Source of the DNA: an uncultured Oscillospiraceae bacterium
GTDB taxonomy: Bacteria > Bacillota > Clostridia > Oscillospirales > Ruminococcaceae
Assembly: GCA_949299455.1 (NCBI GenBank)
Contig: CASGAN010000013.1
Location: forward strand, 1-42,478
Direction: 5' to 3'
Length of the DNA: 42,478 nucleotides
The notes beneath the pieces are model-generated. The model saw nothing but the letters and a program-made list of their open reading frames with translations. It ran no database searches and was not told where the DNA came from. Below are positions 323 through 23,802 of the stretch, piece after piece. The translations under genes were made by a program, and so were the position numbers. Positions within the stretch are counted from its first letter, which is position 1. Every line of letters starts with the position of its first letter.

Positions 323-1693
323 TTATCTTTCCATTTTCACGATACATTCACAATGCGTTGTCCGCGGGAACATGTCAACCGGGATAATCTCTTTAACCGC
401 ATATCCGGCATCTGTCAAAAGGCGAGTATCCCGTGCCGCCGTTGCCGGATTACATGACACCATCACAAGCCGTTTTGGTGCCATTGCTTGGATTGCATCG
501 ATGACTTCCCCGTCCAGTCCCTTTCGCGGCGGGTCCACTACGATCACGTCCGGTGCAATCCCGGACGACGCAAACCGTTTGGCCGCTTCTTTGGCATCTG
601 CACAATAAAACGACGCATGCGAAATCCCGTTTCGTGCAGCGTTTTCTTTTGCATTTTCGATTGCCTCGGGCACGATCTCTACACCAATCACTTCTTTCAC
701 CTGTGAAGCTGCCGCAAGTCCGATTGTTCCCGCACCGCAGTACAGATCAAGCAGCAAATCGTCTTTGCTGAGCGATGCACAGGAAAGCGCCGTCTGGTAC
801 AGCACCTCTGCCTGATCACGGTTGACCTGATAAAACGAAAGCGGAGAAAGTGTAATCCGCACGCCGCACAAAATGTCTTCAATCGTGTCGCTTCCCGCAA
901 GCGTGATGCACTCTTTTCCCAAAATGACGTTCGTTTTTTCCGGATTGACATTGAGCACAACGCTTGCCACCTGCGGATACTGCTTCACGAGCTCCTGTGC
1001 AAGTTCGGAAAACAAATGAGCCGCCGGTGATGCACACACAAAGCAGACCATGATCTGATTCGTTTTCTCGCCAATGCGCAGATACAAATGACGCAAAATT
1101 CCGCTGTGCATTTGCTCGTCATATACCGGAATATTATGCAGCTGCACATACCGGCTGACCGTCTCACGGATGCGGTCAAAAACCGGCGGATGGAGTGCAC
1201 AGCGGCTGCTGTCAATAATCCGGTGACTGCGTCTTGCATAAAATCCGCACTGCACCTTCTTCTCTTTGGAAAGTCCGAACGGATACTGCGCTTTATTCCG
1301 ATACCGGTTCACCCGCTCACTTTTAATAATCGGCGAAACCGATGTCAAAATTCCGCCGAGACGCGAAAACGCATCTGCAACCATTTCTTGTTTTAAACGG
1401 CATTCCTCTTCATAGGAAATATGCCGAAACGAACAGCCGCCGCACTGTTTAAACTGCGCGCAGTCCGGCACCACACGCGTTTTCGACGGGATAAGCACCG
1501 ATTCAAGCCGTCCATAGCCAAAGCTTTTATTTTTCTTCACAAGCCGAATCATACAGCGGTCTCCCACAGCTGTATCCGGCACAAATACCGCATACTGTCC
1601 GATCCGTCCGACACCGTTACCCTCGTTTGTCATGCCGGTAATCTCTATTTCATACAGATGATTTTTTTGAATATCCGTCATCTCGTTTTTCAT
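323..1693 (-). CDS. rlmD: 23S rRNA (uracil-5-)-methyltransferase RlmD/RlmCD
   Basis: A 456-residue RNA m5U methyltransferase of the TrmA/RlmD family, which methylates 23S rRNA uridines (U1939, and in Gram-positive RlmCD also U747) in the cytoplasm. An N-terminal TRAM-type OB domain (about residues 10-70) is followed by the [4Fe-4S] cysteines C78, C84, C87 and C165. The C-terminal Rossmann domain has the SAM loop LLDLYCGAGTIGLAA, and the catalytic cysteine sits in VMVSCNPATAARD near the end. Length is normal for the family. ATG at 1693 is used; the SD-like GGGAG is about 12 nt upstream, rather far, so the later ATG of MTDIQK is possible. It is divergent from the beta-galactosidase gene and has its own promoter (1734-1762). 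Family assignment is secure; the exact target base is inferred. Confidence 0.93.
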   Translation of the reverse strand: MKNEMTDIQKNHLYEIEITGMTNEGNGVGRIGQYAVFVPDTAVGDRCMIRLVKKNKSFGYGRLESVLIPSKTRVVPDCAQFKQCGGCSFRHISYEEECRLKQEMVADAFSRLGGILTSVSPIIKSERVNRYRNKAQYPFGLSKEKKVQCGFYARRSHRIIDSSRCALHPPVFDRIRETVSRYVQLHNIPVYDEQMHSGILRHLYLRIGEKTNQIMVCFVCASPAAHLFSELAQELVKQYPQVASVVLNVNPEKTNVILGKECITLAGSDTIEDILCGVRITLSPLSFYQVNRDQAEVLYQTALSCASLSKDDLLLDLYCGAGTIGLAAASQVKEVIGVEIVPEAIENAKENAARNGISHASFYCADAKEAAKRFASSGIAPDVIVVDPPRKGLDGEVIDAIQAMAPKRLVMVSCNPATAARDTRLLTDAGYAVKEIIPVDMFPRTTHCECIVKMER

Positions 1694-10932: not shown

Positions 10933-14067
<3,135 letters not shown>

Positions 14068-14091: not shown

Positions 14092-14140
14092 AAAAAAAGA
14101 CAATGATGCCTTTAATGCGAAAACACTAAAGACACCATTG
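14092..14140 (-). terminator. intrinsic terminator (attenuator) in the pyrG leader
   Basis: Arms 14127-14140 and 14101-14114 pair over 14 bp (two G-U) around a 12-nt loop, followed by a seven-U tract (14092-14098). It starts within about 10 nt of the predicted transcript start and lies 110 nt before pyrG, so pyrG expression needs read-through or antitermination. Confidence 0.88.
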
Positions 14141-14144
14141 CCTT
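14129..14144 (-). promoter_or_regulatory. AxxGxx hexaloop hairpin (candidate ANTAR target), pyrG leader
   Basis: AAGGC-[AAUGGU]-GUCUU: five pairs, including a G-U next to the closing C-G, and a hexaloop with A1 and G4. Most of it overlaps the 5' arm of the terminator at 14092-14140, so the two folds exclude each other. Confidence 0.65.
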
Positions 14145-14154
14145 TTACCCGAAT

Positions 14155-14183
14155 ATTTTACACGTTTTTTGAGTGTTTGTCAA
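14155..14183 (-). promoter_or_regulatory. sigma-A promoter of pyrG-purF-dapL
   Basis: TTGACA (14178-14183), 17 bp, TAAAAT (14155-14160) on the minus strand. The predicted start is at the CGGG around 14148. It begins about 30 bp after the asnB stop, with no terminator between. Confidence 0.85.
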
Positions 14184-14213
14184 CTGATCTGCAAGTGTTT
14201 TTATGAAAACGAT

Positions 14214-15797
14214 TTATTTTCCGCTGTCACCGTAGTTTGAAAGGACACGCGCAGAAGGATCGTTTACATCACAGCCCTCCCACGATTTATTCGGCATCCA
14301 GAAATCAACGATCATTTCGCTTTGACCCGGATAGTATTTTTCAAAGATCTCACGGTAAAGAAGCGATTCTTTTGTAAACGGACGTGCATGCGTATATTTT
14401 TTACATCCCGCTTCAAATGCCTCATCTGTATAGACTTGCTCTGCATATTCTTTCAGGTCATCTACCATCGAATGTCCGACTGCATCGGAAAACGCAGCTT
14501 TTTCACGCCAGAGGATTTCGGTTGGCAGATATTCGCCGTCCTCGAATGCATGCCGGAGCAGGTATTTGCCTTTTCCGTAGGTGTTTTGTTTCATATGCGG
14601 ATCAAGTGCCATCACATATTTTACGAAATCAAGATCGCCGAACGGTACACGCGCTTCCAGCGAGTTTACAGAGATACAGCGATCTGCACGAAGCACATCA
14701 TACATATGAAGTTCGCGAATACGTTTCTCTGATTCCTGCTGAAATGCCTCAGCACTCGGTGCAAAGTCGGTGTATTTATATCCGAACAGCTCATCGGAAA
14801 TCTCACCGGTCAGCAGTACGCGAATGTCTGTCTGCTCATGAATTGCCTTGCAGATCAGATACATACCCATGCTGGCACGAATGGTTGTAATATCAAAGGT
14901 ACCAAGCGTTTGAATCACTGTTTCAAGCGAGGAGAGCACCTCTTCGGGTGTCATATAAATCTCAGTGTGATCGCTGCCAATATATTCGGCGACCTGCCGT
15001 GCATATTTAAAGTCGATTGCATCCTTTTGCATCCCGACTGCAAACGTTTTAATCGGCACAGTACTTTCTTTTGCAGCGATTGCACACACAAGCGAAGAAT
15101 CCAATCCGCCGGAGAGCAAAAATCCTACTTTTGCATCCGCAACCAGTCGTTTTTTCACACCGGCAATCAATTTTTCACGAATCTGACGGCAAGCGGTTTC
15201 AAGGTCATCGCGGCAGACAGCTTCCGGCTTTGCAATGTCACAATAGCAGACGAATTCGCCTTTTTGATAATAATGTCCGGGCGGAAACGGTATGATGTTC
15301 GCCGCGATTCCAACAAGGTTCTTAGCCTCGCTTGCAAAAAGAATCGCACCGTCATCATCATATCCATAATACAGCGGCCGAATCCCGATCGAATCGCGTG
15401 CAGCAATAAATTCGCCGGTCTGTCCGTCATACAAAATGCACGCAAACTCCGCATCCAGCATCGAAAACATCTCGACACCGTATTCCCGATACATCGGCAG
15501 CAGAATTTCACAGTCGCTGTCACTTTGAAACGAATACCCTTTTTCCTTTAAACGTTCTTTCTCTTTTTCAAATCCATACAATTCGCCGTTGCATACCACA
15601 TAGCTTCCGTCCAGTTCAAACGGCTGCATTCCGGAAGGCGTCAGTCCCATAATCGCCAGTCGGTGAAAGCCCATCAAGCCTTTTCCTGTATCAACGATCC
15701 GGCTGTCATCCGGTCCGCGGGAAACCGTCCGCTCAAAGCCTTTTAAAAATGAAGAATAGGCGGCATCGCTTTTGCAATAGCCCATAATCGAACACAT
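14214..15797 (-). CDS. asnB: asparagine synthase (glutamine-hydrolysing), AsnB type
   Basis: A 527-residue class II amidotransferase converting aspartate + glutamine + ATP to asparagine. Cys2 in MCSIMGY is the glutaminase nucleophile; RGPDDS and NGELYG belong to the glutamine site. The synthetase half has the pyrophosphate loop SGGLDSS and LTGEISDELFGYKY, the E. coli AsnB-like arrangement. GGAGG lies 8 nt before the ATG. A T-box leader with a probable AAC specifier (15815-16075) agrees with control by uncharged tRNA-Asn. It lies after glnN on the same strand and may be transcribed with it as well as from its own start. Confidence 0.95.
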   Translation of the reverse strand: MCSIMGYCKSDAAYSSFLKGFERTVSRGPDDSRIVDTGKGLMGFHRLAIMGLTPSGMQPFELDGSYVVCNGELYGFEKEKERLKEKGYSFQSDSDCEILLPMYREYGVEMFSMLDAEFACILYDGQTGEFIAARDSIGIRPLYYGYDDDGAILFASEAKNLVGIAANIIPFPPGHYYQKGEFVCYCDIAKPEAVCRDDLETACRQIREKLIAGVKKRLVADAKVGFLLSGGLDSSLVCAIAAKESTVPIKTFAVGMQKDAIDFKYARQVAEYIGSDHTEIYMTPEEVLSSLETVIQTLGTFDITTIRASMGMYLICKAIHEQTDIRVLLTGEISDELFGYKYTDFAPSAEAFQQESEKRIRELHMYDVLRADRCISVNSLEARVPFGDLDFVKYVMALDPHMKQNTYGKGKYLLRHAFEDGEYLPTEILWREKAAFSDAVGHSMVDDLKEYAEQVYTDEAFEAGCKKYTHARPFTKESLLYREIFEKYYPGQSEMIVDFWMPNKSWEGCDVNDPSARVLSNYGDSGK

Positions 15798-15814
15798 AAA
15801 AGATTCCTCCGTTT

Positions 15815-16075
15815 TTTCATCAATTCAGCATTCTATAGGGCAAGTGCTGTACTCGCGGTGCCACCTATCTTTTCACTCATTTTTGTCTGCCTCAAACAAG
15901 GCTTCTCCGACTGACGCGGGAGAACACGGCGCACCTACTGGGAAACACTCTCGTGATTCCGTTCAGATTGCAGCTCGAAAAGTGTTTTTCAAACAGACCT
16001 GCCATACGGATTCCACCCGCCCGTACTCTCTTTAGACAAGCGCCCTGCTTTACTTTTCTTTTCTCAAACGCTTTT
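15815..16075 (-). promoter_or_regulatory. T-box leader of asnB, probable tRNA-Asn specificity
   Basis: The T-box core AGGTGGCACCGCG is at 15854-15866. The antiterminator folds fully: ATAGG (15864-15868) with CCTAT (15835-15839), the 7-nt UGGCACC bulge, and GCGAG (15852-15856) with CTTGC (15840-15844). Stem I features are present: AGAGAG, then a TACGG/CCGTA hairpin with a GGUGGAA-containing loop (about 16000-16030). AAC (15984-15986), followed by ACUUUUCGAGC, fits the specifier position, meaning asparagine. I find no hairpin with a U-tract between the T-box and asnB, so control may be translational or use a weak terminator. Confidence 0.85.
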
Positions 16076-16091
16076 GATATCAAGATTATTT

Positions 16092-18191
<2,100 letters not shown>

Positions 18192-18210
18192 AATCAAAAA
18201 CTCCTTTTGA

Positions 18211-18269
18211 CTTTGTTCAATTCAAACAAAGCACTCATTTGATTCTTGCATCAAAGACTCCCTTGCCTT
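18211..18269 (-). promoter_or_regulatory. second AxxGxx hairpin and following stems, glnN leader
   Basis: At 18254-18269 the RNA AAGGC-[AAGGGA]-GUCUU repeats the stem of the first hairpin with a different loop that keeps A1 and G4. It is followed by UUUGAU/AUCAAA (18238-18255) and CUUUGUU/AACAAAG (18211-18231), the latter just before AAAGGAG. No convincing U-tract follows, so this copy does not obviously overlap a terminator. Confidence 0.55.
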
Positions 18270-18291
18270 CTCGCATTTGGTTTTCAATAAG

Positions 18292-18331
18292 AAAAAAGGC
18301 GCCTTTGAGTTCATTCCTCAAAGACGCCTTT
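18292..18331 (-). terminator. intrinsic terminator (attenuator) in the glnN leader
   Basis: Arms 18317-18331 and 18295-18309 pair over 15 bp (one G-U) around GAAUGAA, followed by a U-run. It begins about 10 nt after the predicted transcript start and about 100 nt before glnN. Confidence 0.9.
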
Positions 18332-18336
18332 GCCTT
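18321..18336 (-). promoter_or_regulatory. AxxGxx hexaloop hairpin (candidate ANTAR target), glnN leader
   Basis: AAGGC-[AAAGGC]-GUCUU, with the same stem as in the pyrG leader. Its loop and 3' arm are part of the terminator's 5' arm, so forming it prevents termination. Confidence 0.68.
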
Positions 18337-18345
18337 ATGTGCTGC

Positions 18346-18374
18346 ATTATACACCCGATTTTCTCTGTTGTCAA
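18346..18374 (-). promoter_or_regulatory. consensus sigma-A promoter of glnN
   Basis: TTGACA (18369-18374), 17 bp, TATAAT (18346-18351), a full match on the minus strand. Predicted start near 18339. Confidence 0.9.
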
Positions 18375-18436
18375 CTCATTTTTGCAATTTTTATTTTTCA
18401 TTCCTGCATAAAATTAAAATCTTATTCACTTTTACA

Positions 18437-18465
18437 TTGACAAAGCGGTTGCTTTCGTGTATAAT
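18437..18465 (+). promoter_or_regulatory. consensus sigma-A promoter of the glutamate synthase-glnA-ANTAR operon
   Basis: TTGACA (18437-18442), 17 bp, TATAAT (18460-18465), a full match. It is back-to-back with the glnN promoter, whose -35 ends 62 bp away. Predicted start near 18472. Confidence 0.9.
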
Positions 18466-18472
18466 ACCTGAC

Positions 18473-18494
18473 AAATGAGCAAAGGCGTTCATTT
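18473..18494 (+). promoter_or_regulatory. AxxGxx hexaloop hairpin (candidate ANTAR target), glutamate synthase leader
   Basis: AAAUGAGC-[AAAGGC]-GUUCAUUU forms eight pairs. The closing C-G and next G-U are kept as in pyrG and glnN. The outer pairs differ in sequence yet still pair (UGA/UCA instead of AG/CU), which looks like covariation. It overlaps the terminator at 18481-18535. Confidence 0.68.
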
Positions 18495-18535
18495 TGGTAC
18501 AGTACCCTTATGTGTATCAAAATGAGCGCTTTTTT
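18481..18535 (+). terminator. intrinsic terminator (attenuator) in the glutamate synthase leader
   Basis: AAAG-CGTTCATTTTG (18481-18496, one bulged G) pairs with CAAAATGAGCGCTTT (18518-18532), followed by a T-run to 18535. The 21-nt loop contains a small GGTA/TACC hairpin. It lies about 30 nt before the first gene. Confidence 0.87.
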
Positions 18536-18564
18536 CTTTGCTTGATTTTCAAGAAAGGACAGGG

Positions 18565-19668
18565 ATGGATATGAAAAAAGAAGGTCAAGTGCGCATTCCG
18601 TCCGGATGTGCAATCGCTGCCGTCATTTCCAAAGAAGGACGCAGAATGTCCGGCGAAGCAATCATCAACGCAATGAAACCCATGCACGATCGTTCCAATG
18701 GTCTCGGCGGCGGTTTTGCAGGATACGGAATTTATCCTGCATATAAAGACTTCTATGCACTGCACATGTTCTTCGATTCACGCACAACAAGAAAGGAATG
18801 CGAAGCATTTTTAAAAGAACGATTTGAAATCGTTTTTTCCGAATTGATTCCAACACGGAAAATAAAAGCCATCACCGATGAACCGATTATCTGGCGGTAT
18901 TTTGTTTCGCCGCTTTCCTCGGTTTACACTGCAATGCAGATTGACGAAAAAGAATTCATCGCTCGCACAGTCATGCAGATCAATGCACAAATGGACGGCG
19001 CTTATGTATTTTCAAGCGGAAAAAACATGGGAGCATTTAAAGCGGTCGGTTTCCCGGAAGATGTCGGTGTCTTTTATCAACTGGAAGAATACGAAGGCTA
19101 TTCCTGGACTGCACACGGACGATATCCAACCAACACACCCGGCTGGTGGGGCGGCGCACATCCGTTCACACTGCTTGACTGGTCGATTGTGCACAACGGC
19201 GAAATTTCTTCTTATGATGCAAACCGCCGCTTTATCGAAATGTTCGGCTATCAGTGCACACTCCAAACCGACACGGAAGTCATTACCTATATCATGGATT
19301 ATCTGATCCGTGTGCAGGGACTCACACTCCGGGAAGCTGCAAATGTTGTTGCCGCACCGTTTTGGAGCACAATCGAAAGAAAAACAGATCCGGCTGAACA
19401 AGAAAAATACCGGTATTTGCGTACTGTCTTTTCAAGCCTGCTGATCACCGGTCCGTTTTCCATTGTGCTTGGGTTTGAAGGCGGCTTGATGGCATTAAAC
19501 GACCGACTAAAGCTTCGCTCTATGGTCATCGGCGAAAAAGATGATAAAACATTCATCGCCAGCGAAGAATCCGCAATTCGTGCAATGGAACCGGATGCAC
19601 AGCATATTTGGGCGCCGGCAGGCGGCGAACCTGTCATTATTCAAGTAAAGGACGGTGCATTCGAATGA
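18565..19668 (+). CDS. gltB1: glutamate synthase glutaminase module (class II amidotransferase)
   Basis: A 367-residue stand-alone amidotransferase domain of split glutamate synthase, releasing ammonia from glutamine for the FMN subunit encoded next. GFAGYGIYP, AHGRYPTNTPGWWGGAHPF and DWSIVHNGEISSYDANRR are the conserved class II glutamine-site segments. The likely nucleophile is Cys15 in IPSGCAIAAVIS, so the first 14 residues would be removed, or the N-terminus behaves differently from the usual MCGI form. GAAAGGA precedes the ATG at 18565; a second ATG at 18571 is possible. Its stop overlaps the next start (ATGA at 19665). First gene of a five-gene operon behind the terminator leader. Confidence 0.9.
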   Translation: MDMKKEGQVRIPSGCAIAAVISKEGRRMSGEAIINAMKPMHDRSNGLGGGFAGYGIYPAYKDFYALHMFFDSRTTRKECEAFLKERFEIVFSELIPTRKIKAITDEPIIWRYFVSPLSSVYTAMQIDEKEFIARTVMQINAQMDGAYVFSSGKNMGAFKAVGFPEDVGVFYQLEEYEGYSWTAHGRYPTNTPGWWGGAHPFTLLDWSIVHNGEISSYDANRRFIEMFGYQCTLQTDTEVITYIMDYLIRVQGLTLREAANVVAAPFWSTIERKTDPAEQEKYRYLRTVFSSLLITGPFSIVLGFEGGLMALNDRLKLRSMVIGEKDDKTFIASEESAIRAMEPDAQHIWAPAGGEPVIIQVKDGAFE

Positions 19669-21170
19669 GCATCTCATTGATTTATCCTGAATTTGAGGTT
19701 GTCCGCAACGACAGCCGCTGTAATAACTGTCGGATCTGCGAACGCCAATGTGCCAACGAGGTACACCGCTTTGATCCGACGCAGGGCGTAATGATCAGTG
19801 ACGAATTGAAATGCGTCAACTGTCAGCGCTGTGTTTCCATGTGCCCGACCAGAGCACTGAAAATCGTAAAAAGCGACTGTGCTCTTCGCGAAAACGCAAA
19901 CTGGACAGCAAATACAATGAAAGAAATCTATAAACAAGCCAACAGCGGCGGTGTATTGCTCTCCTCGATGGGCAGTCCTTCAGAGCTTCCTGTTTATTGG
20001 GACAGGATTCTGCTCAATGCGTCGCAGGTAACCAATCCGTCGATCGATCCGCTGCGTGAGCCAATGGAAACGCGTGTATCGCTCGGAAAAAAGCCGCAGC
20101 AAATCAAACGTGATGCATCCGGCCGCATGATCTGTGAACTGCCGCCGCAAATCGAGCTTTCCATGCCGGTGATGTTCTCTGCAATGAGCTATGGTTCCAT
20201 CAGCTATAACGCACACGCTGCACTGGCGCGTGCCGCAACAGAACTCGGCATTTACTACAACACCGGTGAGGGCGGTTTGCACGAAGACTTCTATTGCTAC
20301 GGGGAAAACACGATCGTGCAGGTGGCTTCCGGACGGTTTGGTGTGCACGAGGATTATTTAAACGCCGGTGCCGCAATTGAAATCAAAATGGGACAAGGTG
20401 CAAAACCAGGGATCGGCGGCCATCTTCCGGGCACAAAAATCATTGGTGATGTGTCCCGCACCCGCATGATTCCCGAAGGTTCCGATGCAATATCCCCTGC
20501 ACCGCATCATGATATCTATTCGATAGAAGATCTCCGCCAGCTTGTCTTTTCATTAAAAGAAGCAACCCGCTATCAAAAACCGATTATCGTAAAAGTGGCT
20601 GCTGTTCACAACATTGCGGCAATCGCCAGCGGTATTGCGCGAAGCGGTGCCGATATCATTGCAATCGACGGATTCCGCGGCGGCACAGGTGCCGCACCCA
20701 CCAGAATCCGCGATAATGTCGGAATTCCGATTGAATTGGCGCTCGCAGCTGTCGATCAGCGTCTGCGGGAAGAAGGAATCCGCAACCATGTTTCCCTCAT
20801 CGTCGGCGGTTCAATCCGCAGTGCATCAGATATTGTAAAAGCGATTGCACTCGGTGCAGATGCATGTTATATCGCAACTGCCGCACTGCTTGCGCTTGGT
20901 TGTCATCTTTGCCGCACCTGCCAAAGCGGCAAATGCAACTGGGGCATTGCAACCCAGCGTCCGGAACTGGTCAAACGGCTTGATCCTGATGTCGGCAGTG
21001 AACGGCTTATCAACTTAATGGATGCCTGGCGCCACGAAATCAAAGAATTGATGGGCGGAATGGGCATCAACTCCATTGAAGCACTGCGCGGAAACCGTCT
21101 GATGCTGCGCGGAATCGGCTTAACGCAAAAAGAACTTGAAATCCTCGGTATTTCGCACGCAGGAGAATAA
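19665..21170 (+). CDS. gltB2: glutamate synthase FMN/iron-sulfur module with N-terminal ferredoxin domain
   Basis: 501 residues. The N-terminus has two [4Fe-4S] motifs (CNNCRICERQC and CVNCQRCVSMCP). They are followed by the FMN-binding GltS barrel that forms glutamate from 2-oxoglutarate and ammonia: GEGGLHEDF, IKMGQGAKPGIGGHLPG, IDGFRGGTGAAP, and the [3Fe-4S] cysteines in CHLCRTCQSGKC. This is the archaeal/clostridial split form, in which the GltB domains are separate genes. The built-in ferredoxin domain, and the absence of a GltD flavoprotein gene nearby, suggest electrons from ferredoxin or from a distant GltD; that part is inference. A longer frame reaches 19608, but the ATGA overlap at 19665 is the sensible start. 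Confidence 0.92.
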   Translation: MSISLIYPEFEVVRNDSRCNNCRICERQCANEVHRFDPTQGVMISDELKCVNCQRCVSMCPTRALKIVKSDCALRENANWTANTMKEIYKQANSGGVLLSSMGSPSELPVYWDRILLNASQVTNPSIDPLREPMETRVSLGKKPQQIKRDASGRMICELPPQIELSMPVMFSAMSYGSISYNAHAALARAATELGIYYNTGEGGLHEDFYCYGENTIVQVASGRFGVHEDYLNAGAAIEIKMGQGAKPGIGGHLPGTKIIGDVSRTRMIPEGSDAISPAPHHDIYSIEDLRQLVFSLKEATRYQKPIIVKVAAVHNIAAIASGIARSGADIIAIDGFRGGTGAAPTRIRDNVGIPIELALAAVDQRLREEGIRNHVSLIVGGSIRSASDIVKAIALGADACYIATAALLALGCHLCRTCQSGKCNWGIATQRPELVKRLDPDVGSERLINLMDAWRHEIKELMGGMGINSIEALRGNRLMLRGIGLTQKELEILGISHAGE

Positions 21171-21222
21171 ACGTGTTTTTCTTTTAAAATACGTAGAAAA
21201 AATATTGGAGGTGCGATATAAT

Positions 21223-21945
21223 ATGAATAAAATACAGGCAAACGACATGGATTACAAAGCTTTAAACGAAGTACTGCGCACAGATCAAACGGAAACGTAT
21301 CTGAGCGGATGCTGCGGACAGCGTTTTATCGGTGCAGGTATGTCAAACAAAGCGATTACCATCGACGGTATTCCCGGCAACGCGCTCGGTGCATACTTAA
21401 ACGGTGCAGTAATTACAGTAAACGGGAATGCACAGGATGCTGTGGGCGATACAATGAATGACGGTCAGATCGTCATTCACGGAAACATCGGAGATGCTGC
21501 CGGGTATGCGATGCGCGGCGGAAAAATCTTTGTAAAAGGAAATGCAGGCTACCGCGCAGGCATCCACATGAAAGCATACAAAGACAAAATTCCTGTTTTA
21601 ATCATCGGCGGACATGCAGGCAGCTTCCTCGGCGAATATCAAGCCGGCGGCATCATTATTGTACTGGGACTTTATGAAGACGATCGTCCGATCGTCGGAA
21701 ATTTTCCATGTACCGGAATGCACGGCGGAAAGATGTTTTTACGCAGCACATGCAGTGACATCCACTTTCCCCACCAAGTAACCGCGCGCGAATTGCATGC
21801 AGAGGAAAAAGATGAGCTTTCCGCCTATCTTCGTGAATACTGTGATCTGTTCGGCTTTGATTTAAACACCATGTTGGATGCACCTTTCACTGTCATTACA
21901 CCTGACAGTAAAAATCCATACAAACAAATGTATGTGCAAAACTAA
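21223..21945 (+). CDS. gltB3: glutamate synthase GXGXG (beta-helix) module
   Basis: A 240-residue third module of split glutamate synthase, the GXGXG right-handed beta-helix that in the fused enzyme scaffolds the glutaminase and FMN domains. Repeated Gly motifs are visible: GNALGAYLNG, GNAQDAVGDTMNDG, GNIGDAAGYAMRGG, GNAGYRAGIHM and GGHAGSFLGEYQAGG. The frame is open from 21136, but TTGGAGGTG sits 8 nt before the ATG at 21223. It is followed by glnA after 21 bp. A similar module also occurs in formylmethanofuran dehydrogenase subunit C, but the context settles it as glutamate synthase. Confidence 0.9.
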   Translation: MNKIQANDMDYKALNEVLRTDQTETYLSGCCGQRFIGAGMSNKAITIDGIPGNALGAYLNGAVITVNGNAQDAVGDTMNDGQIVIHGNIGDAAGYAMRGGKIFVKGNAGYRAGIHMKAYKDKIPVLIIGGHAGSFLGEYQAGGIIIVLGLYEDDRPIVGNFPCTGMHGGKMFLRSTCSDIHFPHQVTARELHAEEKDELSAYLREYCDLFGFDLNTMLDAPFTVITPDSKNPYKQMYVQN

Positions 21946-21966: not shown

Positions 21967-23184
21967 ATGAAATATTCAAAAGAAGAAGTCTTGCAGTATG
22001 TGCAGGAGGATGATGTGAAGTTCATTCGTCTGGCCTTCTGCGATGTGTTCGGCAAGCAAAAAAACATCTCCATCATGCCGCAGGAACTTCCGCGCGCTTT
22101 TGAATACGGAATTGCATTTGATGCCTCTGCGATTGCGGGATTTGGCGATGAAACCCACTCGGATTTATTGCTTCATCCGGAGCCGGAAACGCTGATGCAG
22201 CTCCTCTGGCGTCCCGAACACGGAAAAGTGGTTCGCATGTTTTCAAGCATCTCGTATCCAGACGGCACACCGTTTGAATGCGATACACGCAGTCTGCTCA
22301 AACAAGCGGTTGCAGACGCACAGCGCGCCGGTTTTTCGTTCTCATTCGGTGCAGAGCAGGAATTTTATCTGTTTTGTTTGGATGAAAACGGGAATCCGTC
22401 AACCATTCCGTACGATAATGCCGGCTACATGGATATCGCACCCGAGGATCGAGGCGAAAATATCCGACGTGAAATTTGCCTGACACTCGAACAAATGGGA
22501 ATTCAGCCTGAAAGCTCTCATCATGAGGAAGGTCCCGGTCAAAATGAAATTGATTTTAGATATTCTGATCCGCTGACTGCGGCTGATAACACGATGACAT
22601 TTCAAACGATCGTCAAAACCGTGTGCCGCCGCAATGGATTGTTTGCTGATTTTGGGCCGAAACCACTCAGCGACAAACCCGGAAACGGATTTCATATCAA
22701 TATGTCCGTCAAGCCATGCAGTGCGTCTGAAAATCTTTGTTATATGATCGCCGGAATTTTAGATAAAATTCCGGAAATTACTGCGTTTTTAAATCCGACC
22801 CAAGCTTCCTATGAACGGTTCGGAAAAAACAAAGCACCGGCATATATTTCCTGGTCCAGCGAAAACCGCTCCCAGCTTGTCCGTATTCCCGCAGCAATCG
22901 GTGAATACCGGCGTGCAGAACTGCGCTCACCTGATCCGACAGCAAATCCATATTTGGCATTCACACTGATGATCTACGCGGGTTTATACGGCATTGAACA
23001 TCAGCTTGATCTGCCTCCTGCTGCAAATTTCAATTTATATCATGCAGATGCACAAACACTCCAGCAGTTTTCAAAACTGCCAACCAGCTTGCAGGAAGCC
23101 GCACAAATTGCAGCATCCAGCGCATTTGTCAAAGCACATATTCCGGAAAAGATTTTAAATCTTTACTGCAAAGAATGTATGTAA
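21967..23184 (+). CDS. glnA: glutamine synthetase type I (short form)
   Basis: A 405-residue GSI enzyme, somewhat shorter than the usual 440-470. The beta-grasp domain (FCDVFGKQKNISI) is followed by the catalytic domain with FGAEQEFYLF (metal ligands), HHEEGPGQNEIDFRYSD, NGFHINMS, and RIPAAIGEYRRAELRSPDPTANPY with the glutamate-flap and arginine contacts. No E. coli-type adenylylation segment is evident. With the preceding three glutamate synthase genes it makes a complete GS-GOGAT cycle in one operon, beside the divergent GSIII gene. The AAAGCAGG ribosome site is weak but suitably placed. Confidence 0.93.
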   Translation: MKYSKEEVLQYVQEDDVKFIRLAFCDVFGKQKNISIMPQELPRAFEYGIAFDASAIAGFGDETHSDLLLHPEPETLMQLLWRPEHGKVVRMFSSISYPDGTPFECDTRSLLKQAVADAQRAGFSFSFGAEQEFYLFCLDENGNPSTIPYDNAGYMDIAPEDRGENIRREICLTLEQMGIQPESSHHEEGPGQNEIDFRYSDPLTAADNTMTFQTIVKTVCRRNGLFADFGPKPLSDKPGNGFHINMSVKPCSASENLCYMIAGILDKIPEITAFLNPTQASYERFGKNKAPAYISWSSENRSQLVRIPAAIGEYRRAELRSPDPTANPYLAFTLMIYAGLYGIEHQLDLPPAANFNLYHADAQTLQQFSKLPTSLQEAAQIAASSAFVKAHIPEKILNLYCKECM

Positions 23185-23217: not shown

Positions 23218-23802
23218 ATGAGTCTGAAAGAACGCATTTATCGTGTTTTGATTGTTTCATCATCAGACAAATTTAATGCTGCTGTTTCTGCTTGCCTTCC
23301 GGAATCAAAGTATTCTCCAATCAAAATTGTTTCAACAATCCGCGCTGCAAAACAAATCCTCACGGAATATTCGTTTGACCATATCATCATCAACGCTCCG
23401 CTTCCGGACGATTTCGGCCTGCATTTTGCCATTGACACTTGCAGCATAAAAGAAACTGTTGTATTGTTGATCGTTTGTGCAGAGTTATATGAAGAAATTT
23501 ATGATAAAGCCGCATCGCACGGCGTTTTTGTATTGTCAAAACCTACATCAAAACCTGCTTTTTTTACTGCACTCAGCTTCATGGCAAGCGCACGAGAACG
23601 CTTTCGAACGTTAGAAAAGAAAACACTCTCCATTGAAGAAAAAATGGAAGAAATCCGAATGGTCAACCGGGCAAAATGGATTTTAATCAGTGAATTAAAA
23701 ATGGATGAGCCAAGTGCACACCGTTATATTGAAAAACAGGCAATGGATCAGTGTGTGACAAGAAAAAATATTGCAGAACAAATTATCAAAATGTATTCCT
23801 AA
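23218..23802 (+). CDS. ANTAR-domain RNA-binding antiterminator with degenerate receiver (NitR-like)
   Basis: 194 residues. Residues 8-125 fold like a response-regulator receiver, but the phospho-acceptor Asp is Asn59 (HIIINAPLPDD) and the acidic pair is replaced by serines (IVSSSDK). The conserved Lys108 (LSKPTSK) remains, so phosphorylation is unlikely to be the signal. A coiled linker (about 125-145) leads to the ANTAR helices, about 140-194: NRAKWILISELKMDEPSAHRYIEKQAMD and KNIAEQIIK. ANTAR proteins bind AxxGxx-loop hairpins and prevent terminator formation. As last gene of the glutamate synthase-glnA operon it probably controls its own operon, glnN and pyrG through the hairpins described. 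Clostridial NitR next to glnA is the nearest known parallel. Confidence 0.88.
   Translation: MSLKERIYRVLIVSSSDKFNAAVSACLPESKYSPIKIVSTIRAAKQILTEYSFDHIIINAPLPDDFGLHFAIDTCSIKETVVLLIVCAELYEEIYDKAASHGVFVLSKPTSKPAFFTALSFMASARERFRTLEKKTLSIEEKMEEIRMVNRAKWILISELKMDEPSAHRYIEKQAMDQCVTRKNIAEQIIKMYS

What the first reader, a model, noticed from the sequence alone, without database searches (positions are those of the whole stretch)
14092..18535. Three glutamine-related operons share a start-proximal AxxGxx hairpin/terminator leader, with an ANTAR protein in one of the operons
Seen: pyrG (14129-14144), glnN (18321-18336) and the glutamate synthase operon (18473-18494) each have a hairpin of the form GC-[AAxGGx]-GU with loops AAUGGU, AAAGGC and AAAGGC. 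Each is embedded in the 5' arm of a strong terminator directly behind a 17-bp-spacer sigma-A promoter. Outer stem pairs differ between leaders but still pair. Known: ANTAR proteins antiterminate by binding AxxGxx hexaloop hairpins. Inference: the ANTAR protein at 23218 controls all three, giving one regulon of glutamine synthesis, glutamate synthesis and the glutamine-using CTP synthase. The unusual points are that only one hairpin lies before each terminator instead of the usual pair, that it sits almost at the transcript's 5' end, and that pyrG is included.
Basis: partly seen in the sequence, partly recalled or inferred. Interest (0 to 1): 0.85.

Follow-up and report, generated by a model that had tools for sequence, protein, structure and literature searches.

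The report
One-hairpin ANTAR switches controlling glutamine genes
Genes for making and using glutamine in this gut bacterium start with a tiny RNA switch that probably works with one docking hairpin where the best-studied switches of this kind need two, and related bacteria put the same switch on further nitrogen and nucleotide genes.

Summary
pyrG, glnN and the glutamate synthase operon each have a consensus promoter, then almost at once one C-[AxxGxx]-G hairpin embedded in the 5' arm of a strong terminator. One ANTAR gene was found in the genome. A covariance model built without the window or its genus finds all three leaders (61.8, 49.2, 36.7 bits). With no selection on the loop, 75 of 108 promoter-proximal hexaloop hairpins in 80 ANTAR-bearing loci are AxxGxx, all 75 closed by C-G. 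Stems covary. ANTAR was found in 37 of 40 class genomes with a model match and 108 of 251 without. None of 54 such leaders has a transcribed partner hairpin upstream, although a like scan finds textbook pairs before glnA in 3 of 10 other genomes. In relatives the module also precedes gdhA, glnA, guaA, purC, purA, asnA, asnB and amt. The ANTAR gene follows glnA in 68 of 68 loci; Asn replaces the phospho-Asp in 80 of 80 sequences. Best reading: a single-hexaloop, 5'-terminal variant of ANTAR antitermination governing glutamine economy. Binding and antitermination are untested.

The parts
14155..14183 (-). pyrG promoter TTGACA-17-TAAAAT
   Evidence: sequence
14128..14145 (-). pyrG leader AxxGxx hairpin (AAAGGC-AAUGGU-GUCUUU)
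   Evidence: (36.7 bits, model without window or genus)
14092..14146 (-). pyrG leader terminator; its 5' arm contains the hairpin
   Evidence: -30.3 kcal/mol, z -10.9; span
12369..13991 (-). pyrG, CTP synthase (glutamine amidotransferase)
   Evidence: Pfam CTP_synth_N E 1.2e-124, GATase 4.5e-41
10933..12372 (-). purF-like glutamine PRPP amidotransferase, overlaps pyrG by 4 nt
   Evidence: Pfam GATase_6 8.1e-21 and Pribosyltran 4.9e-05; the name is inferred from this pair
18346..18374 (-). glnN promoter TTGACA-17-TATAAT
   Evidence: sequence
18321..18336 (-). glnN leader AxxGxx hairpin 1 (AAGGC-AAAGGC-GUCUU)
   Evidence: (49.2 bits)
18292..18331 (-). glnN leader terminator
   Evidence: leader segment -25.9 kcal/mol, z -5.7; span
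18253..18270 (-). glnN leader second AxxGxx hairpin (GAAGGC-AAGGGA-GUCUUU); own terminator weak in this species
   Evidence: (z -1.4)
16092..18197 (-). glnN, type III glutamine synthetase
   Evidence: Pfam GSIII_N 9.8e-81
18437..18465 (+). glutamate synthase operon promoter TTGACA-17-TATAAT
   Evidence: sequence
18473..18494 (+). glt leader AxxGxx hairpin (AAAUGAGC-AAAGGC-GUUCAUUU)
   Evidence: (61.8 bits)
18481..18535 (+). glt leader terminator
   Evidence: -28.5 kcal/mol, z -6.3; span
18538..21945 (+). split glutamate synthase genes: GATase domain, FMN/synthase domain, GXGXG domain
   Evidence: Pfam GATase_2 2.8e-11, Glu_synthase 1e-139, GXGXG 5.9e-30
21967..23184 (+). glnA, type I glutamine synthetase of 405 aa, directly upstream of the ANTAR gene
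   Evidence: Pfam Gln-synt_C 1.9e-86; PDB relatives
23218..23802 (+). ANTAR protein: pseudo-receiver (Asn59 for the phospho-Asp) + linker helix + ANTAR domain with His168
   Evidence: Pfam ANTAR 3.4e-15, Response_reg 6.7e-05 below its cut-off; only ANTAR found in the assembly; alignments

Best explanation
The three leaders are transcription attenuators run by the genome's ANTAR protein, in a minimal one-hairpin form. RNA polymerase starts within a few bases of the hairpin. By default the hairpin's 3' strand is taken by the downstream arm and a strong terminator forms after about 50-65 nt. When the ANTAR protein is active it grips the AxxGGx hexaloop and C-G closing pair of the weak 5'-terminal hairpin, the terminator cannot form, and the operon is read. 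The module recurs across many Clostridia families on genes that make, supply or spend glutamine and ammonia, including nucleotide genes. Shown here: anatomy, conservation, paired changes in the stem, lack of a partner hairpin, gene targets, co-occurrence with ANTAR. Inferred: that this protein binds and antiterminates. Further inference: activity is set not by a kinase (the phospho-Asp is gone) but by a partner, most likely the glutamine synthetase encoded next to it, so that the switch is on when glutamine is short.
For: The model without window or genus finds the three leaders at 61.8, 49.2 and 36.7 bits; the next full-length match in the genome has 28.7 bits and no such hairpin. Loop-blind count: 75 of 108 promoter-proximal hexaloop hairpins are A..G, all 75 closed by C-G (crude p about 4e-64 against 1/16). 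Upstream of gltGAT 42 of 45 regions have it within 30 nt of the -10 box; 36 of 38 when the window and loci fetched by the motif are set aside. Stem: 97.8% of cells paired, 51 two-sided changes against 18.9 in shuffles, 0 of 500 as high. One ANTAR gene found. ANTAR found in 37 of 40 class genomes with a model match against 108 of 251 others. One-hairpin leaders also turned up before glt, glnN or glnA in 8 of 14 further ANTAR regions from genomes that the model had scored as negative. Other targets: gdhA, guaA, purC, purA, asnA, asnB, amt, N-acetyl sugar amidotransferase. ANTAR follows glnA in 68 of 68 loci with enough upstream sequence; Asn59 in 80 of 80 sequences. Loop positions 1, 2, 4 and 5 agree with the published eut consensus AGCAANGRRGCUY (PMC3369931, passages).
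Against: No binding or read-through data. For EutV both hairpins are needed in vivo and a single stem-loop binds less well (PMC3369931, PMC8934654, passages); NasR binds one hairpin at about 12 uM against about 1 uM for two (PMC7496416, passages). The residue matching EutV Tyr164, which stacks on loop G4, is His here. In the covariation test two of five measures are less striking (pairs with two-sided change 4, reached by 35 of 500 shuffles; further pair types 10, by 23 of 500), and much of the change is between the glt-type and glnN-type stems. Five assemblies (G190, G030, G035, G360 at 97-99% and G079 at 88% completeness) have elements or matches and no ANTAR gene found; G414 likewise, with a distant glnA. 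Within the family alone co-occurrence is weak (17 of 18 against 92 of 130, p 0.02). Transcription starts are inferred from promoter consensus only.
Confidence: 0.82

Rival explanations
1. Canonical two-hairpin ANTAR elements: a second hairpin exists but was missed because transcription starts farther upstream or the partner lies elsewhere, for example the second glnN hairpin.
For: The ANTAR targets characterised in the papers cited here have two hairpins. 28 of 158 promoter-proximal elements have a second module 61-162 nt downstream.
Against: 0 of 54 promoter-proximal leaders with a known gene in the 80 ANTAR loci have a transcribed A..G hexaloop hairpin 14-70 nt upstream, with any closing pair. 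With a looser set, 4 of 190 hairpin+terminator matches in these loci have a C-AxxGxx-G hairpin 14-45 nt upstream; by eye three are chance and one overlaps the promoter. In the 151 elements there is one, L184, inside its own terminator. The scan does find real pairs before glnA in 3 of 10 other genomes. pyrG and glt here have no second module. Downstream modules lie beyond the first terminator, far from the 5-12 nt linker reported for eut.
Confidence: 0.06
2. Nucleotide-sensing attenuation unrelated to ANTAR, such as CTP-sensitive reiterative G addition at the pyrG start, as in Bacillus subtilis.
For: pyrG of B. subtilis is controlled this way (PMC4448216, passages), and the window's pyrG start reads GGGU.
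Against: The G run is not kept in relatives: CUGGUA in G112, CGGAAA in G101, CCCCGUG in G140, while the hairpin is. It cannot explain the same module at glnN, glt, gdhA or asnA.
Confidence: 0.04
3. The hairpin is a protein site, but for another RNA-binding protein, or the ANTAR protein acts the opposite way, favouring termination.
For: Only comparative evidence links protein and RNA; six assemblies have an element or match and no ANTAR gene found.
Against: Loop, closing pair and overlap with the terminator follow the known ANTAR mode; the protein is the only ANTAR found and sits in a target operon.
Confidence: 0.07
4. Fixed terminators: the leaders are constitutive brakes or sources of short RNAs without regulation.
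For: Strong terminators right after strong promoters would give abundant short RNAs.
Against: Loop positions not needed for a terminator are conserved: six loops, all AANGGN, make 70 of the 75 A..G hairpins in the loop-blind count, and the alternative stem keeps its pairing.
Confidence: 0.03

Closest known systems
EutV/P1-P2 antiterminator RNA of Enterococcus faecalis eut genes (Ramesh 2012 PMC3369931, abstract and passages; Walshe 2022 PMC8934654, abstract and passages)
   Same: Hexaloop with A1 and G4, C-G closing pair in the eut consensus, hairpin overlapping the 5' arm of an intrinsic terminator, ANTAR protein with a receiver-like domain.
   Different: One hairpin, not two; placed at the transcript's 5' end; protein lacks the phospho-Asp and has His at the place of Tyr164; targets are glutamine genes.
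AmiR of Pseudomonas aeruginosa (PDB 1qo0)
   Same: ANTAR protein with a pseudo-receiver controlled by a partner, not a kinase (PMC8934654 and PMC3369931, passages).
   Different: No AmiC homologue was looked for; the adjacent gene is glutamine synthetase; only a weak match by sequence (E 0.0089).
NitR antiterminator of Clostridium acetobutylicum and the ANTAR gene Clo1313_2030 in the C. thermocellum ammonia-assimilation cluster (PMC4676874, one passage)
   Same: ANTAR gene linked to ammonia assimilation genes, with the same proposed antiterminator role.
   Different: No RNA element is described in the passage read; an antisense RNA is mentioned there; the original paper was not looked up.
Predicted ANTAR targets at glutamate and glutamine synthase genes in Desulfotomaculum species (Ramesh 2012, passages)
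   Same: ANTAR regulon of nitrogen assimilation.
   Different: Found with a two-hairpin model; no nucleotide genes named in the passages read (its supplementary tables were not available).
B. subtilis pyrG attenuator (through PMC4448216, passages)
   Same: Terminator before pyrG that responds to events at the transcript start.
   Different: Regulated by CTP-sensitive slippage, not by an RNA-binding protein.

Membership tests
Two-hexaloop ANTAR RNA element (P1-P2) | Hexaloop with A at position 1 and G at position 4 | tested here: met
   Three window leaders; 75 of 108 in the loop-blind count
Two-hexaloop ANTAR RNA element (P1-P2) | C-G pair closing the loop | tested here: met
   75 of 75 A..G hairpins, no selection on the pair
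Two-hexaloop ANTAR RNA element (P1-P2) | Hairpin overlaps the 5' arm of an intrinsic terminator | tested here: met
Two-hexaloop ANTAR RNA element (P1-P2) | Second hairpin P1 upstream with a short linker | tested here: not met
   0 of 54 leaders; positive control: pairs in 3 of 10 other regions
ANTAR protein (PF03861) | ANTAR domain above the curated cut-off | tested here: met
   56 bits against 27.3
ANTAR protein (PF03861) | Aromatic residue at the place of EutV Tyr164, which contacts loop G4 | tested here: inconclusive
   His168 here and in 79 of 80 sequences; His is common in the class
EutV-like ANTAR response regulator | Phospho-acceptor Asp in the receiver | tested here: not met
   Asn59 in 80 of 80 sequences
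ANTAR antitermination system | Protein binding to the hairpin and regulated read-through | not testable with these tools
   Needs bench work
B. subtilis-type pyrG reiterative attenuator | Conserved G run at the start allowing slippage | tested here: not met
   GGGU in the window; not kept in G112, G101, G140
T-box leader | Match to RF00230 for any of the three leaders | tested here: not met
   Only the asnB leader (15833-16077) matches, 80.5 bits, below gathering 93; no Rfam family at gathering in the window

The most novel reading that the evidence does not exclude
One-hairpin, 5'-terminal ANTAR attenuation is the common form in Clostridia, and the two-hairpin form known from EutV is one variant beside it. 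A pseudo-receiver ANTAR protein encoded behind glutamine synthetase reads glutamine status through GlnA and governs the whole glutamine economy of many gut Clostridia, including purine and CTP synthesis. Some lineages (genus g146) also make an orphan short RNA with the same site that may act as a decoy.
Probability: 0.45. Interest if true: 0.85.

Novelty: new variant of a known kind. Interest (0 to 1): 0.7.

Why it matters
Work on EutV left an open question: a dimer contacts one hexaloop, yet two are needed in vivo. A natural one-hairpin class, with related genomes that keep two hairpins before the same gene (glnA), makes that question testable by swapping leaders and proteins. It also joins nitrogen assimilation and nucleotide synthesis in one RNA-based regulon in gut bacteria. 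A search with a strict two-hairpin model could miss it.

Tried and rejected
An idea that failed. I first thought that one-hairpin leaders go with ANTARs that have His at the Tyr164 place. Ten of 10 typed ANTARs from genomes with a model match have His, and 6 of 8 from genomes without a match have Tyr/Phe, but those eight came mostly from the top of a score list that favours canonical ANTARs. A further 20 from lower in the list gave 18 His (one of them read by eye) and 2 Tyr; overall 10 of 10 against 20 of 28, p 0.06. Worse for the idea, all ten regions have Tyr/Phe ANTARs, and six of them show a single AxxGxx hairpin+terminator before glnA with no partner 14-70 nt upstream. So the residue does not decide between one and two hairpins, and one-hairpin leaders are wider than the His type. 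I took this claim out of the novel case and lowered my interest score from 0.73 to 0.70.

Other negatives. Rfam at gathering gave nothing; the permissive search gave only the asnB T-box as credible. Of 78 model matches in the own genome, 20 were fetched, three being the window's; of the other 17 the script flagged two (L118, hairpin inside the promoter; L133, no terminator seen by eye) and I read L117 and L119. None is such a leader; the remaining 58 weaker matches were not read. A genome-wide loop+T-run pattern gave no excess over its reversed control (88 against 106). The looser family pattern matched 51 of 148 genomes, but its reversed control matched 15 (my count). At E 0.1 the model matches 141 of 148 family genomes and is then unspecific; L151 and L153 look like another kind of site and L158 has a 3-bp stem. 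A loose two-hairpin pattern over 20 genomes was too noisy: 57 against 20 control matches in ten Tyr/Phe-type genomes, 56 against 60 in ten others. Structure prediction was never accepted. Ten paper searches showed no description of one-hairpin ANTAR leaders or of ANTAR control of pyrG, guaA or purC; several listings were capped (for example 20 of 681 papers), the library lacks most subscription journals, and supplementary tables were not available.

Counting notes. The 151 promoter-proximal elements include loci fetched by motif or model, so loop and distance figures from that set are biased; the sets chosen by protein only are and the 36 of 38. Of 58 candidate leaders, 46 went into the model; the 12 left out are the window's three, L031 (two), L034, L017, L020, L026, L038 minus strand, L056 purC and L063. 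The 37 of 40 and 17 of 18 tallies were read by me from the lists. The model misses real elements, so 40 of 291 is a lower bound and the 251 are not clean negatives.
Full report
Observation. The three leaders are real and as described. Each has a consensus promoter with a 17-bp spacer, then a hairpin stem 7-9 nt after the -10 box, then a terminator whose 5' arm contains the hairpin. The leader segments fold at -30.3, -25.9 and -28.5 kcal/mol, none of 200 shuffles doing as well; the isolated hairpins fold at -5.2, -3.1 and -6.1. The strict promoter+hairpin pattern occurs three times in the 2.22-Mb assembly, all in this window, with 0 control matches. One ANTAR gene was found in that assembly (99.76% complete), the one at 23218.

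The glnN leader has a second AxxGxx hairpin at 18253-18270. In this species its surroundings do not fold into a clear terminator (z -1.4), but tandem modules are common in relatives: 28 of 158 promoter-proximal elements have a second module 61-162 nt downstream, 19 of the 28 before glnN. pyrG overlaps a purF-like gene, another glutamine amidotransferase. asnB, between pyrG and glnN, has a T-box instead.

Is it chance? Three tests. First, a model built from 46 leaders of other genera found the window's three at 61.8, 49.2 and 36.7 bits. Second, in 80 loci chosen only for an ANTAR protein (80 kept of 191), I collected every hexaloop hairpin of at least 5 bp lying 3-16 nt behind a good promoter, with no condition on loop or closing pair: 75 of 108 are A..G, all 75 closed by C-G. 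Third, upstream of gltGAT 42 of 45 regions have the hairpin within 30 nt of the -10 box (36 of 38 without the window and motif-fetched loci). Of the three misses, L013 has it slightly farther on, L046 has A for the closing C, and in L082 no promoter was found. The stem keeps its pairing: 97.8% of cells paired, 51 two-sided changes against a shuffled mean of 18.9; two weaker measures are reached by 35 and 23 of 500 shuffles, and much of the change separates glt-type from glnN-type stems. The commonest 5' stems are AAGGC and UGAGC, with UGAAC and ACAGC forms in other genomes.

One hairpin, not two. In 132 of 151 elements the stem starts 6-10 nt after the -10 box (partly motif-fetched), which on the usual spacing puts it at about +1 to +5 (inference). 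In the 80 ANTAR loci, 0 of 54 promoter-proximal leaders with a known gene have a transcribed A..G hexaloop hairpin 14-70 nt upstream, whatever its closing pair. Among all 190 hairpin+terminator matches there, 4 have a C-AxxGxx-G hairpin 14-45 nt upstream, none credible by eye. As a positive control the same scan, on 12-13 kb around the ANTAR genes of ten other class genomes, found textbook pairs in three (G368, G379, G150), loops 33-39 nt apart, the second in a terminator, each before a 444-codon ORF that reads as glnA (identified by eye). Six of the other seven regions have a single AxxGxx hairpin+terminator before glnA and no partner, here with weaker or more distant promoters. So both forms occur before the same gene, and the absence of a partner is not a blind spot of the scan.

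Protein. In 80 aligned sequences (the window and 79 relatives) the place of the phospho-Asp is Asn in 80 of 80, so this is a pseudo-receiver. glnA ends 15-290 nt upstream in 68 of 68 loci with enough sequence. The ANTAR domain has His168 (79 of 80) where EutV has Tyr164, and Trp154 (79 of 80) where EutV has Gly. His at this place is widespread in the class, also where the model found nothing (18 of 20), and one-hairpin leaders occur with Tyr/Phe ANTARs too, so it does not explain the one-hairpin form. GlnA aligns with known type I synthetases over nearly its full length.

Regulon. By NCBIfam, targets in relatives include gdhA (L038, L193), guaA (L036, N-terminal domain over its cut-off), purA (L106, L156; L038 partial), purC (L056, L155, L169, L196), asnA (L161, L168, L177, L159), amt (L182; L174 has only a marginal hairpin), N-acetyl sugar amidotransferase (L175), large gltB (L110; L172 partial) and a gatD-like gene below the cut-off (L187). 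asnB (L190) and pyrG are named by similarity to window proteins. Some of these modules have no promoter close by (for example L038 purA, L106 purA, L112 pyrG). Matches that do not fit well: ilvE in G079 (L164), a PEP-synthase-like ORF behind the glt-type leader of L082, and a glycosidase-like ORF 326 nt behind the leader of L163, where by eye a fragment of glnA coding sequence remains.

Distribution. The model at E 1e-5 matches 40 of 291 class genomes under 17 family labels; ANTAR was found in 37 of these 40 and in 108 of the other 251. Not all 40 matches were inspected. The model is not exhaustive: of 14 ANTAR regions with the His type from genomes it had scored as negative, 8 have a promoter-proximal one-hairpin module before glt, glnN or glnA, one more (G162) has such modules before genes not identified, and one (G189) shows a doubtful pair. 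Against the link, G190, G360 and G414 have a match and no ANTAR found; in the family scans so do G035, G030 and G079. In five of these six glnA was not found either at E 1e-20 (G414 has one at 42% identity), and the G035 leaders lie on a 6.7-kb contig. Joint loss or assembly gaps fit, but are not proven. Within the family alone the association is weak (17 of 18 against 92 of 130, p 0.02).

Comparison with the known. ANTAR proteins antiterminate by stabilising hexaloop hairpins that overlap terminators; EutV needs two hairpins in vivo and tolerates little change of linker (PMC3369931, passages), although a dimer contacts only one hexaloop and the minimal binding motif was redefined as one hexaloop (PMC8934654, abstract and passages). 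NasR binds a single hairpin at about 12 uM against about 1 uM for the pair (PMC7496416, passages). ANTAR links to glutamate and glutamine synthase genes are known (PMC3369931, passages; PMC4676874, one passage, cites nitR of C. acetobutylicum). New here, as far as the searches listed under Tried and rejected reach: the one-hairpin 5'-terminal architecture as a conserved class, and its reach into CTP and purine genes.

Mechanism. Shown: two mutually exclusive folds, conserved loop, stem that keeps pairing, terminator, one ANTAR gene found. Inferred: protein binding to the loop holds the 5' hairpin, blocks the terminator and opens the operon. Further inferred: since the receiver lacks the usual phosphorylation site and glnA is adjacent in every locus that could be checked, glutamine synthetase may hold the ANTAR protein inactive when glutamine is plentiful, as GS controls GlnR in other Gram-positives (PMC9249791, search listing with the start of its abstract only) and AmiC controls AmiR.

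Noticed in passing
window 15833-16077 (-): asnB has a T-box leader (RF00230, 80.5 bits, E 5.7e-17, below gathering), whereas a relative (L190) has the ANTAR-type hairpin before asnB.
   Followed up: partly
window 14001-14067 (-): Between the pyrG terminator and the pyrG start lies an inverted repeat with 15-nt arms (14053-14067 and 14001-14015; fold -27.4 kcal/mol, z -4.1) without a T run; not seen by eye in the same-genus leader L165.
   Followed up: partly
L197, L199, L207 around 1500-1600 (+); L198, L208, L209 on the other strand: In genus g146 a conserved promoter + AxxGxx hairpin + terminator has no convincing gene behind it, and in L197, L199 and L207 the next 100 nt or so are also conserved by eye: possible orphan small RNA or ANTAR decoy (the other three loci were aligned in the wrong orientation and read by eye only).
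   Followed up: partly
L163 (G079) about 2052-2250: A glt-type leader followed, by eye, by a remnant of glnA coding sequence, in a genome where no ANTAR or glnA was found: looks like a decayed operon.
   Followed up: partly
L182 (G113), minus strand, 3071 and 3175: Ammonium transporter leader with two AxxGxx hairpins of quite different stems 104 nt apart; its product carries a C-terminal P-II-like domain.
   Followed up: no
window 21967-23184 (+): GlnA is 405 aa; against a PDB relative of 446 aa it lacks about 15 residues at internal loops and about 20 at the C-terminus.
   Followed up: no
L264, L265, L268, L269, L270, L271 before glnA: Tyr/Phe-type ANTAR genomes with a single hairpin of the form (A)GAAC-AxxGxC-GUUCU (stem base varies) before glnA, a second family of one-hairpin leaders with weaker or more distant promoters.
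   Followed up: partly
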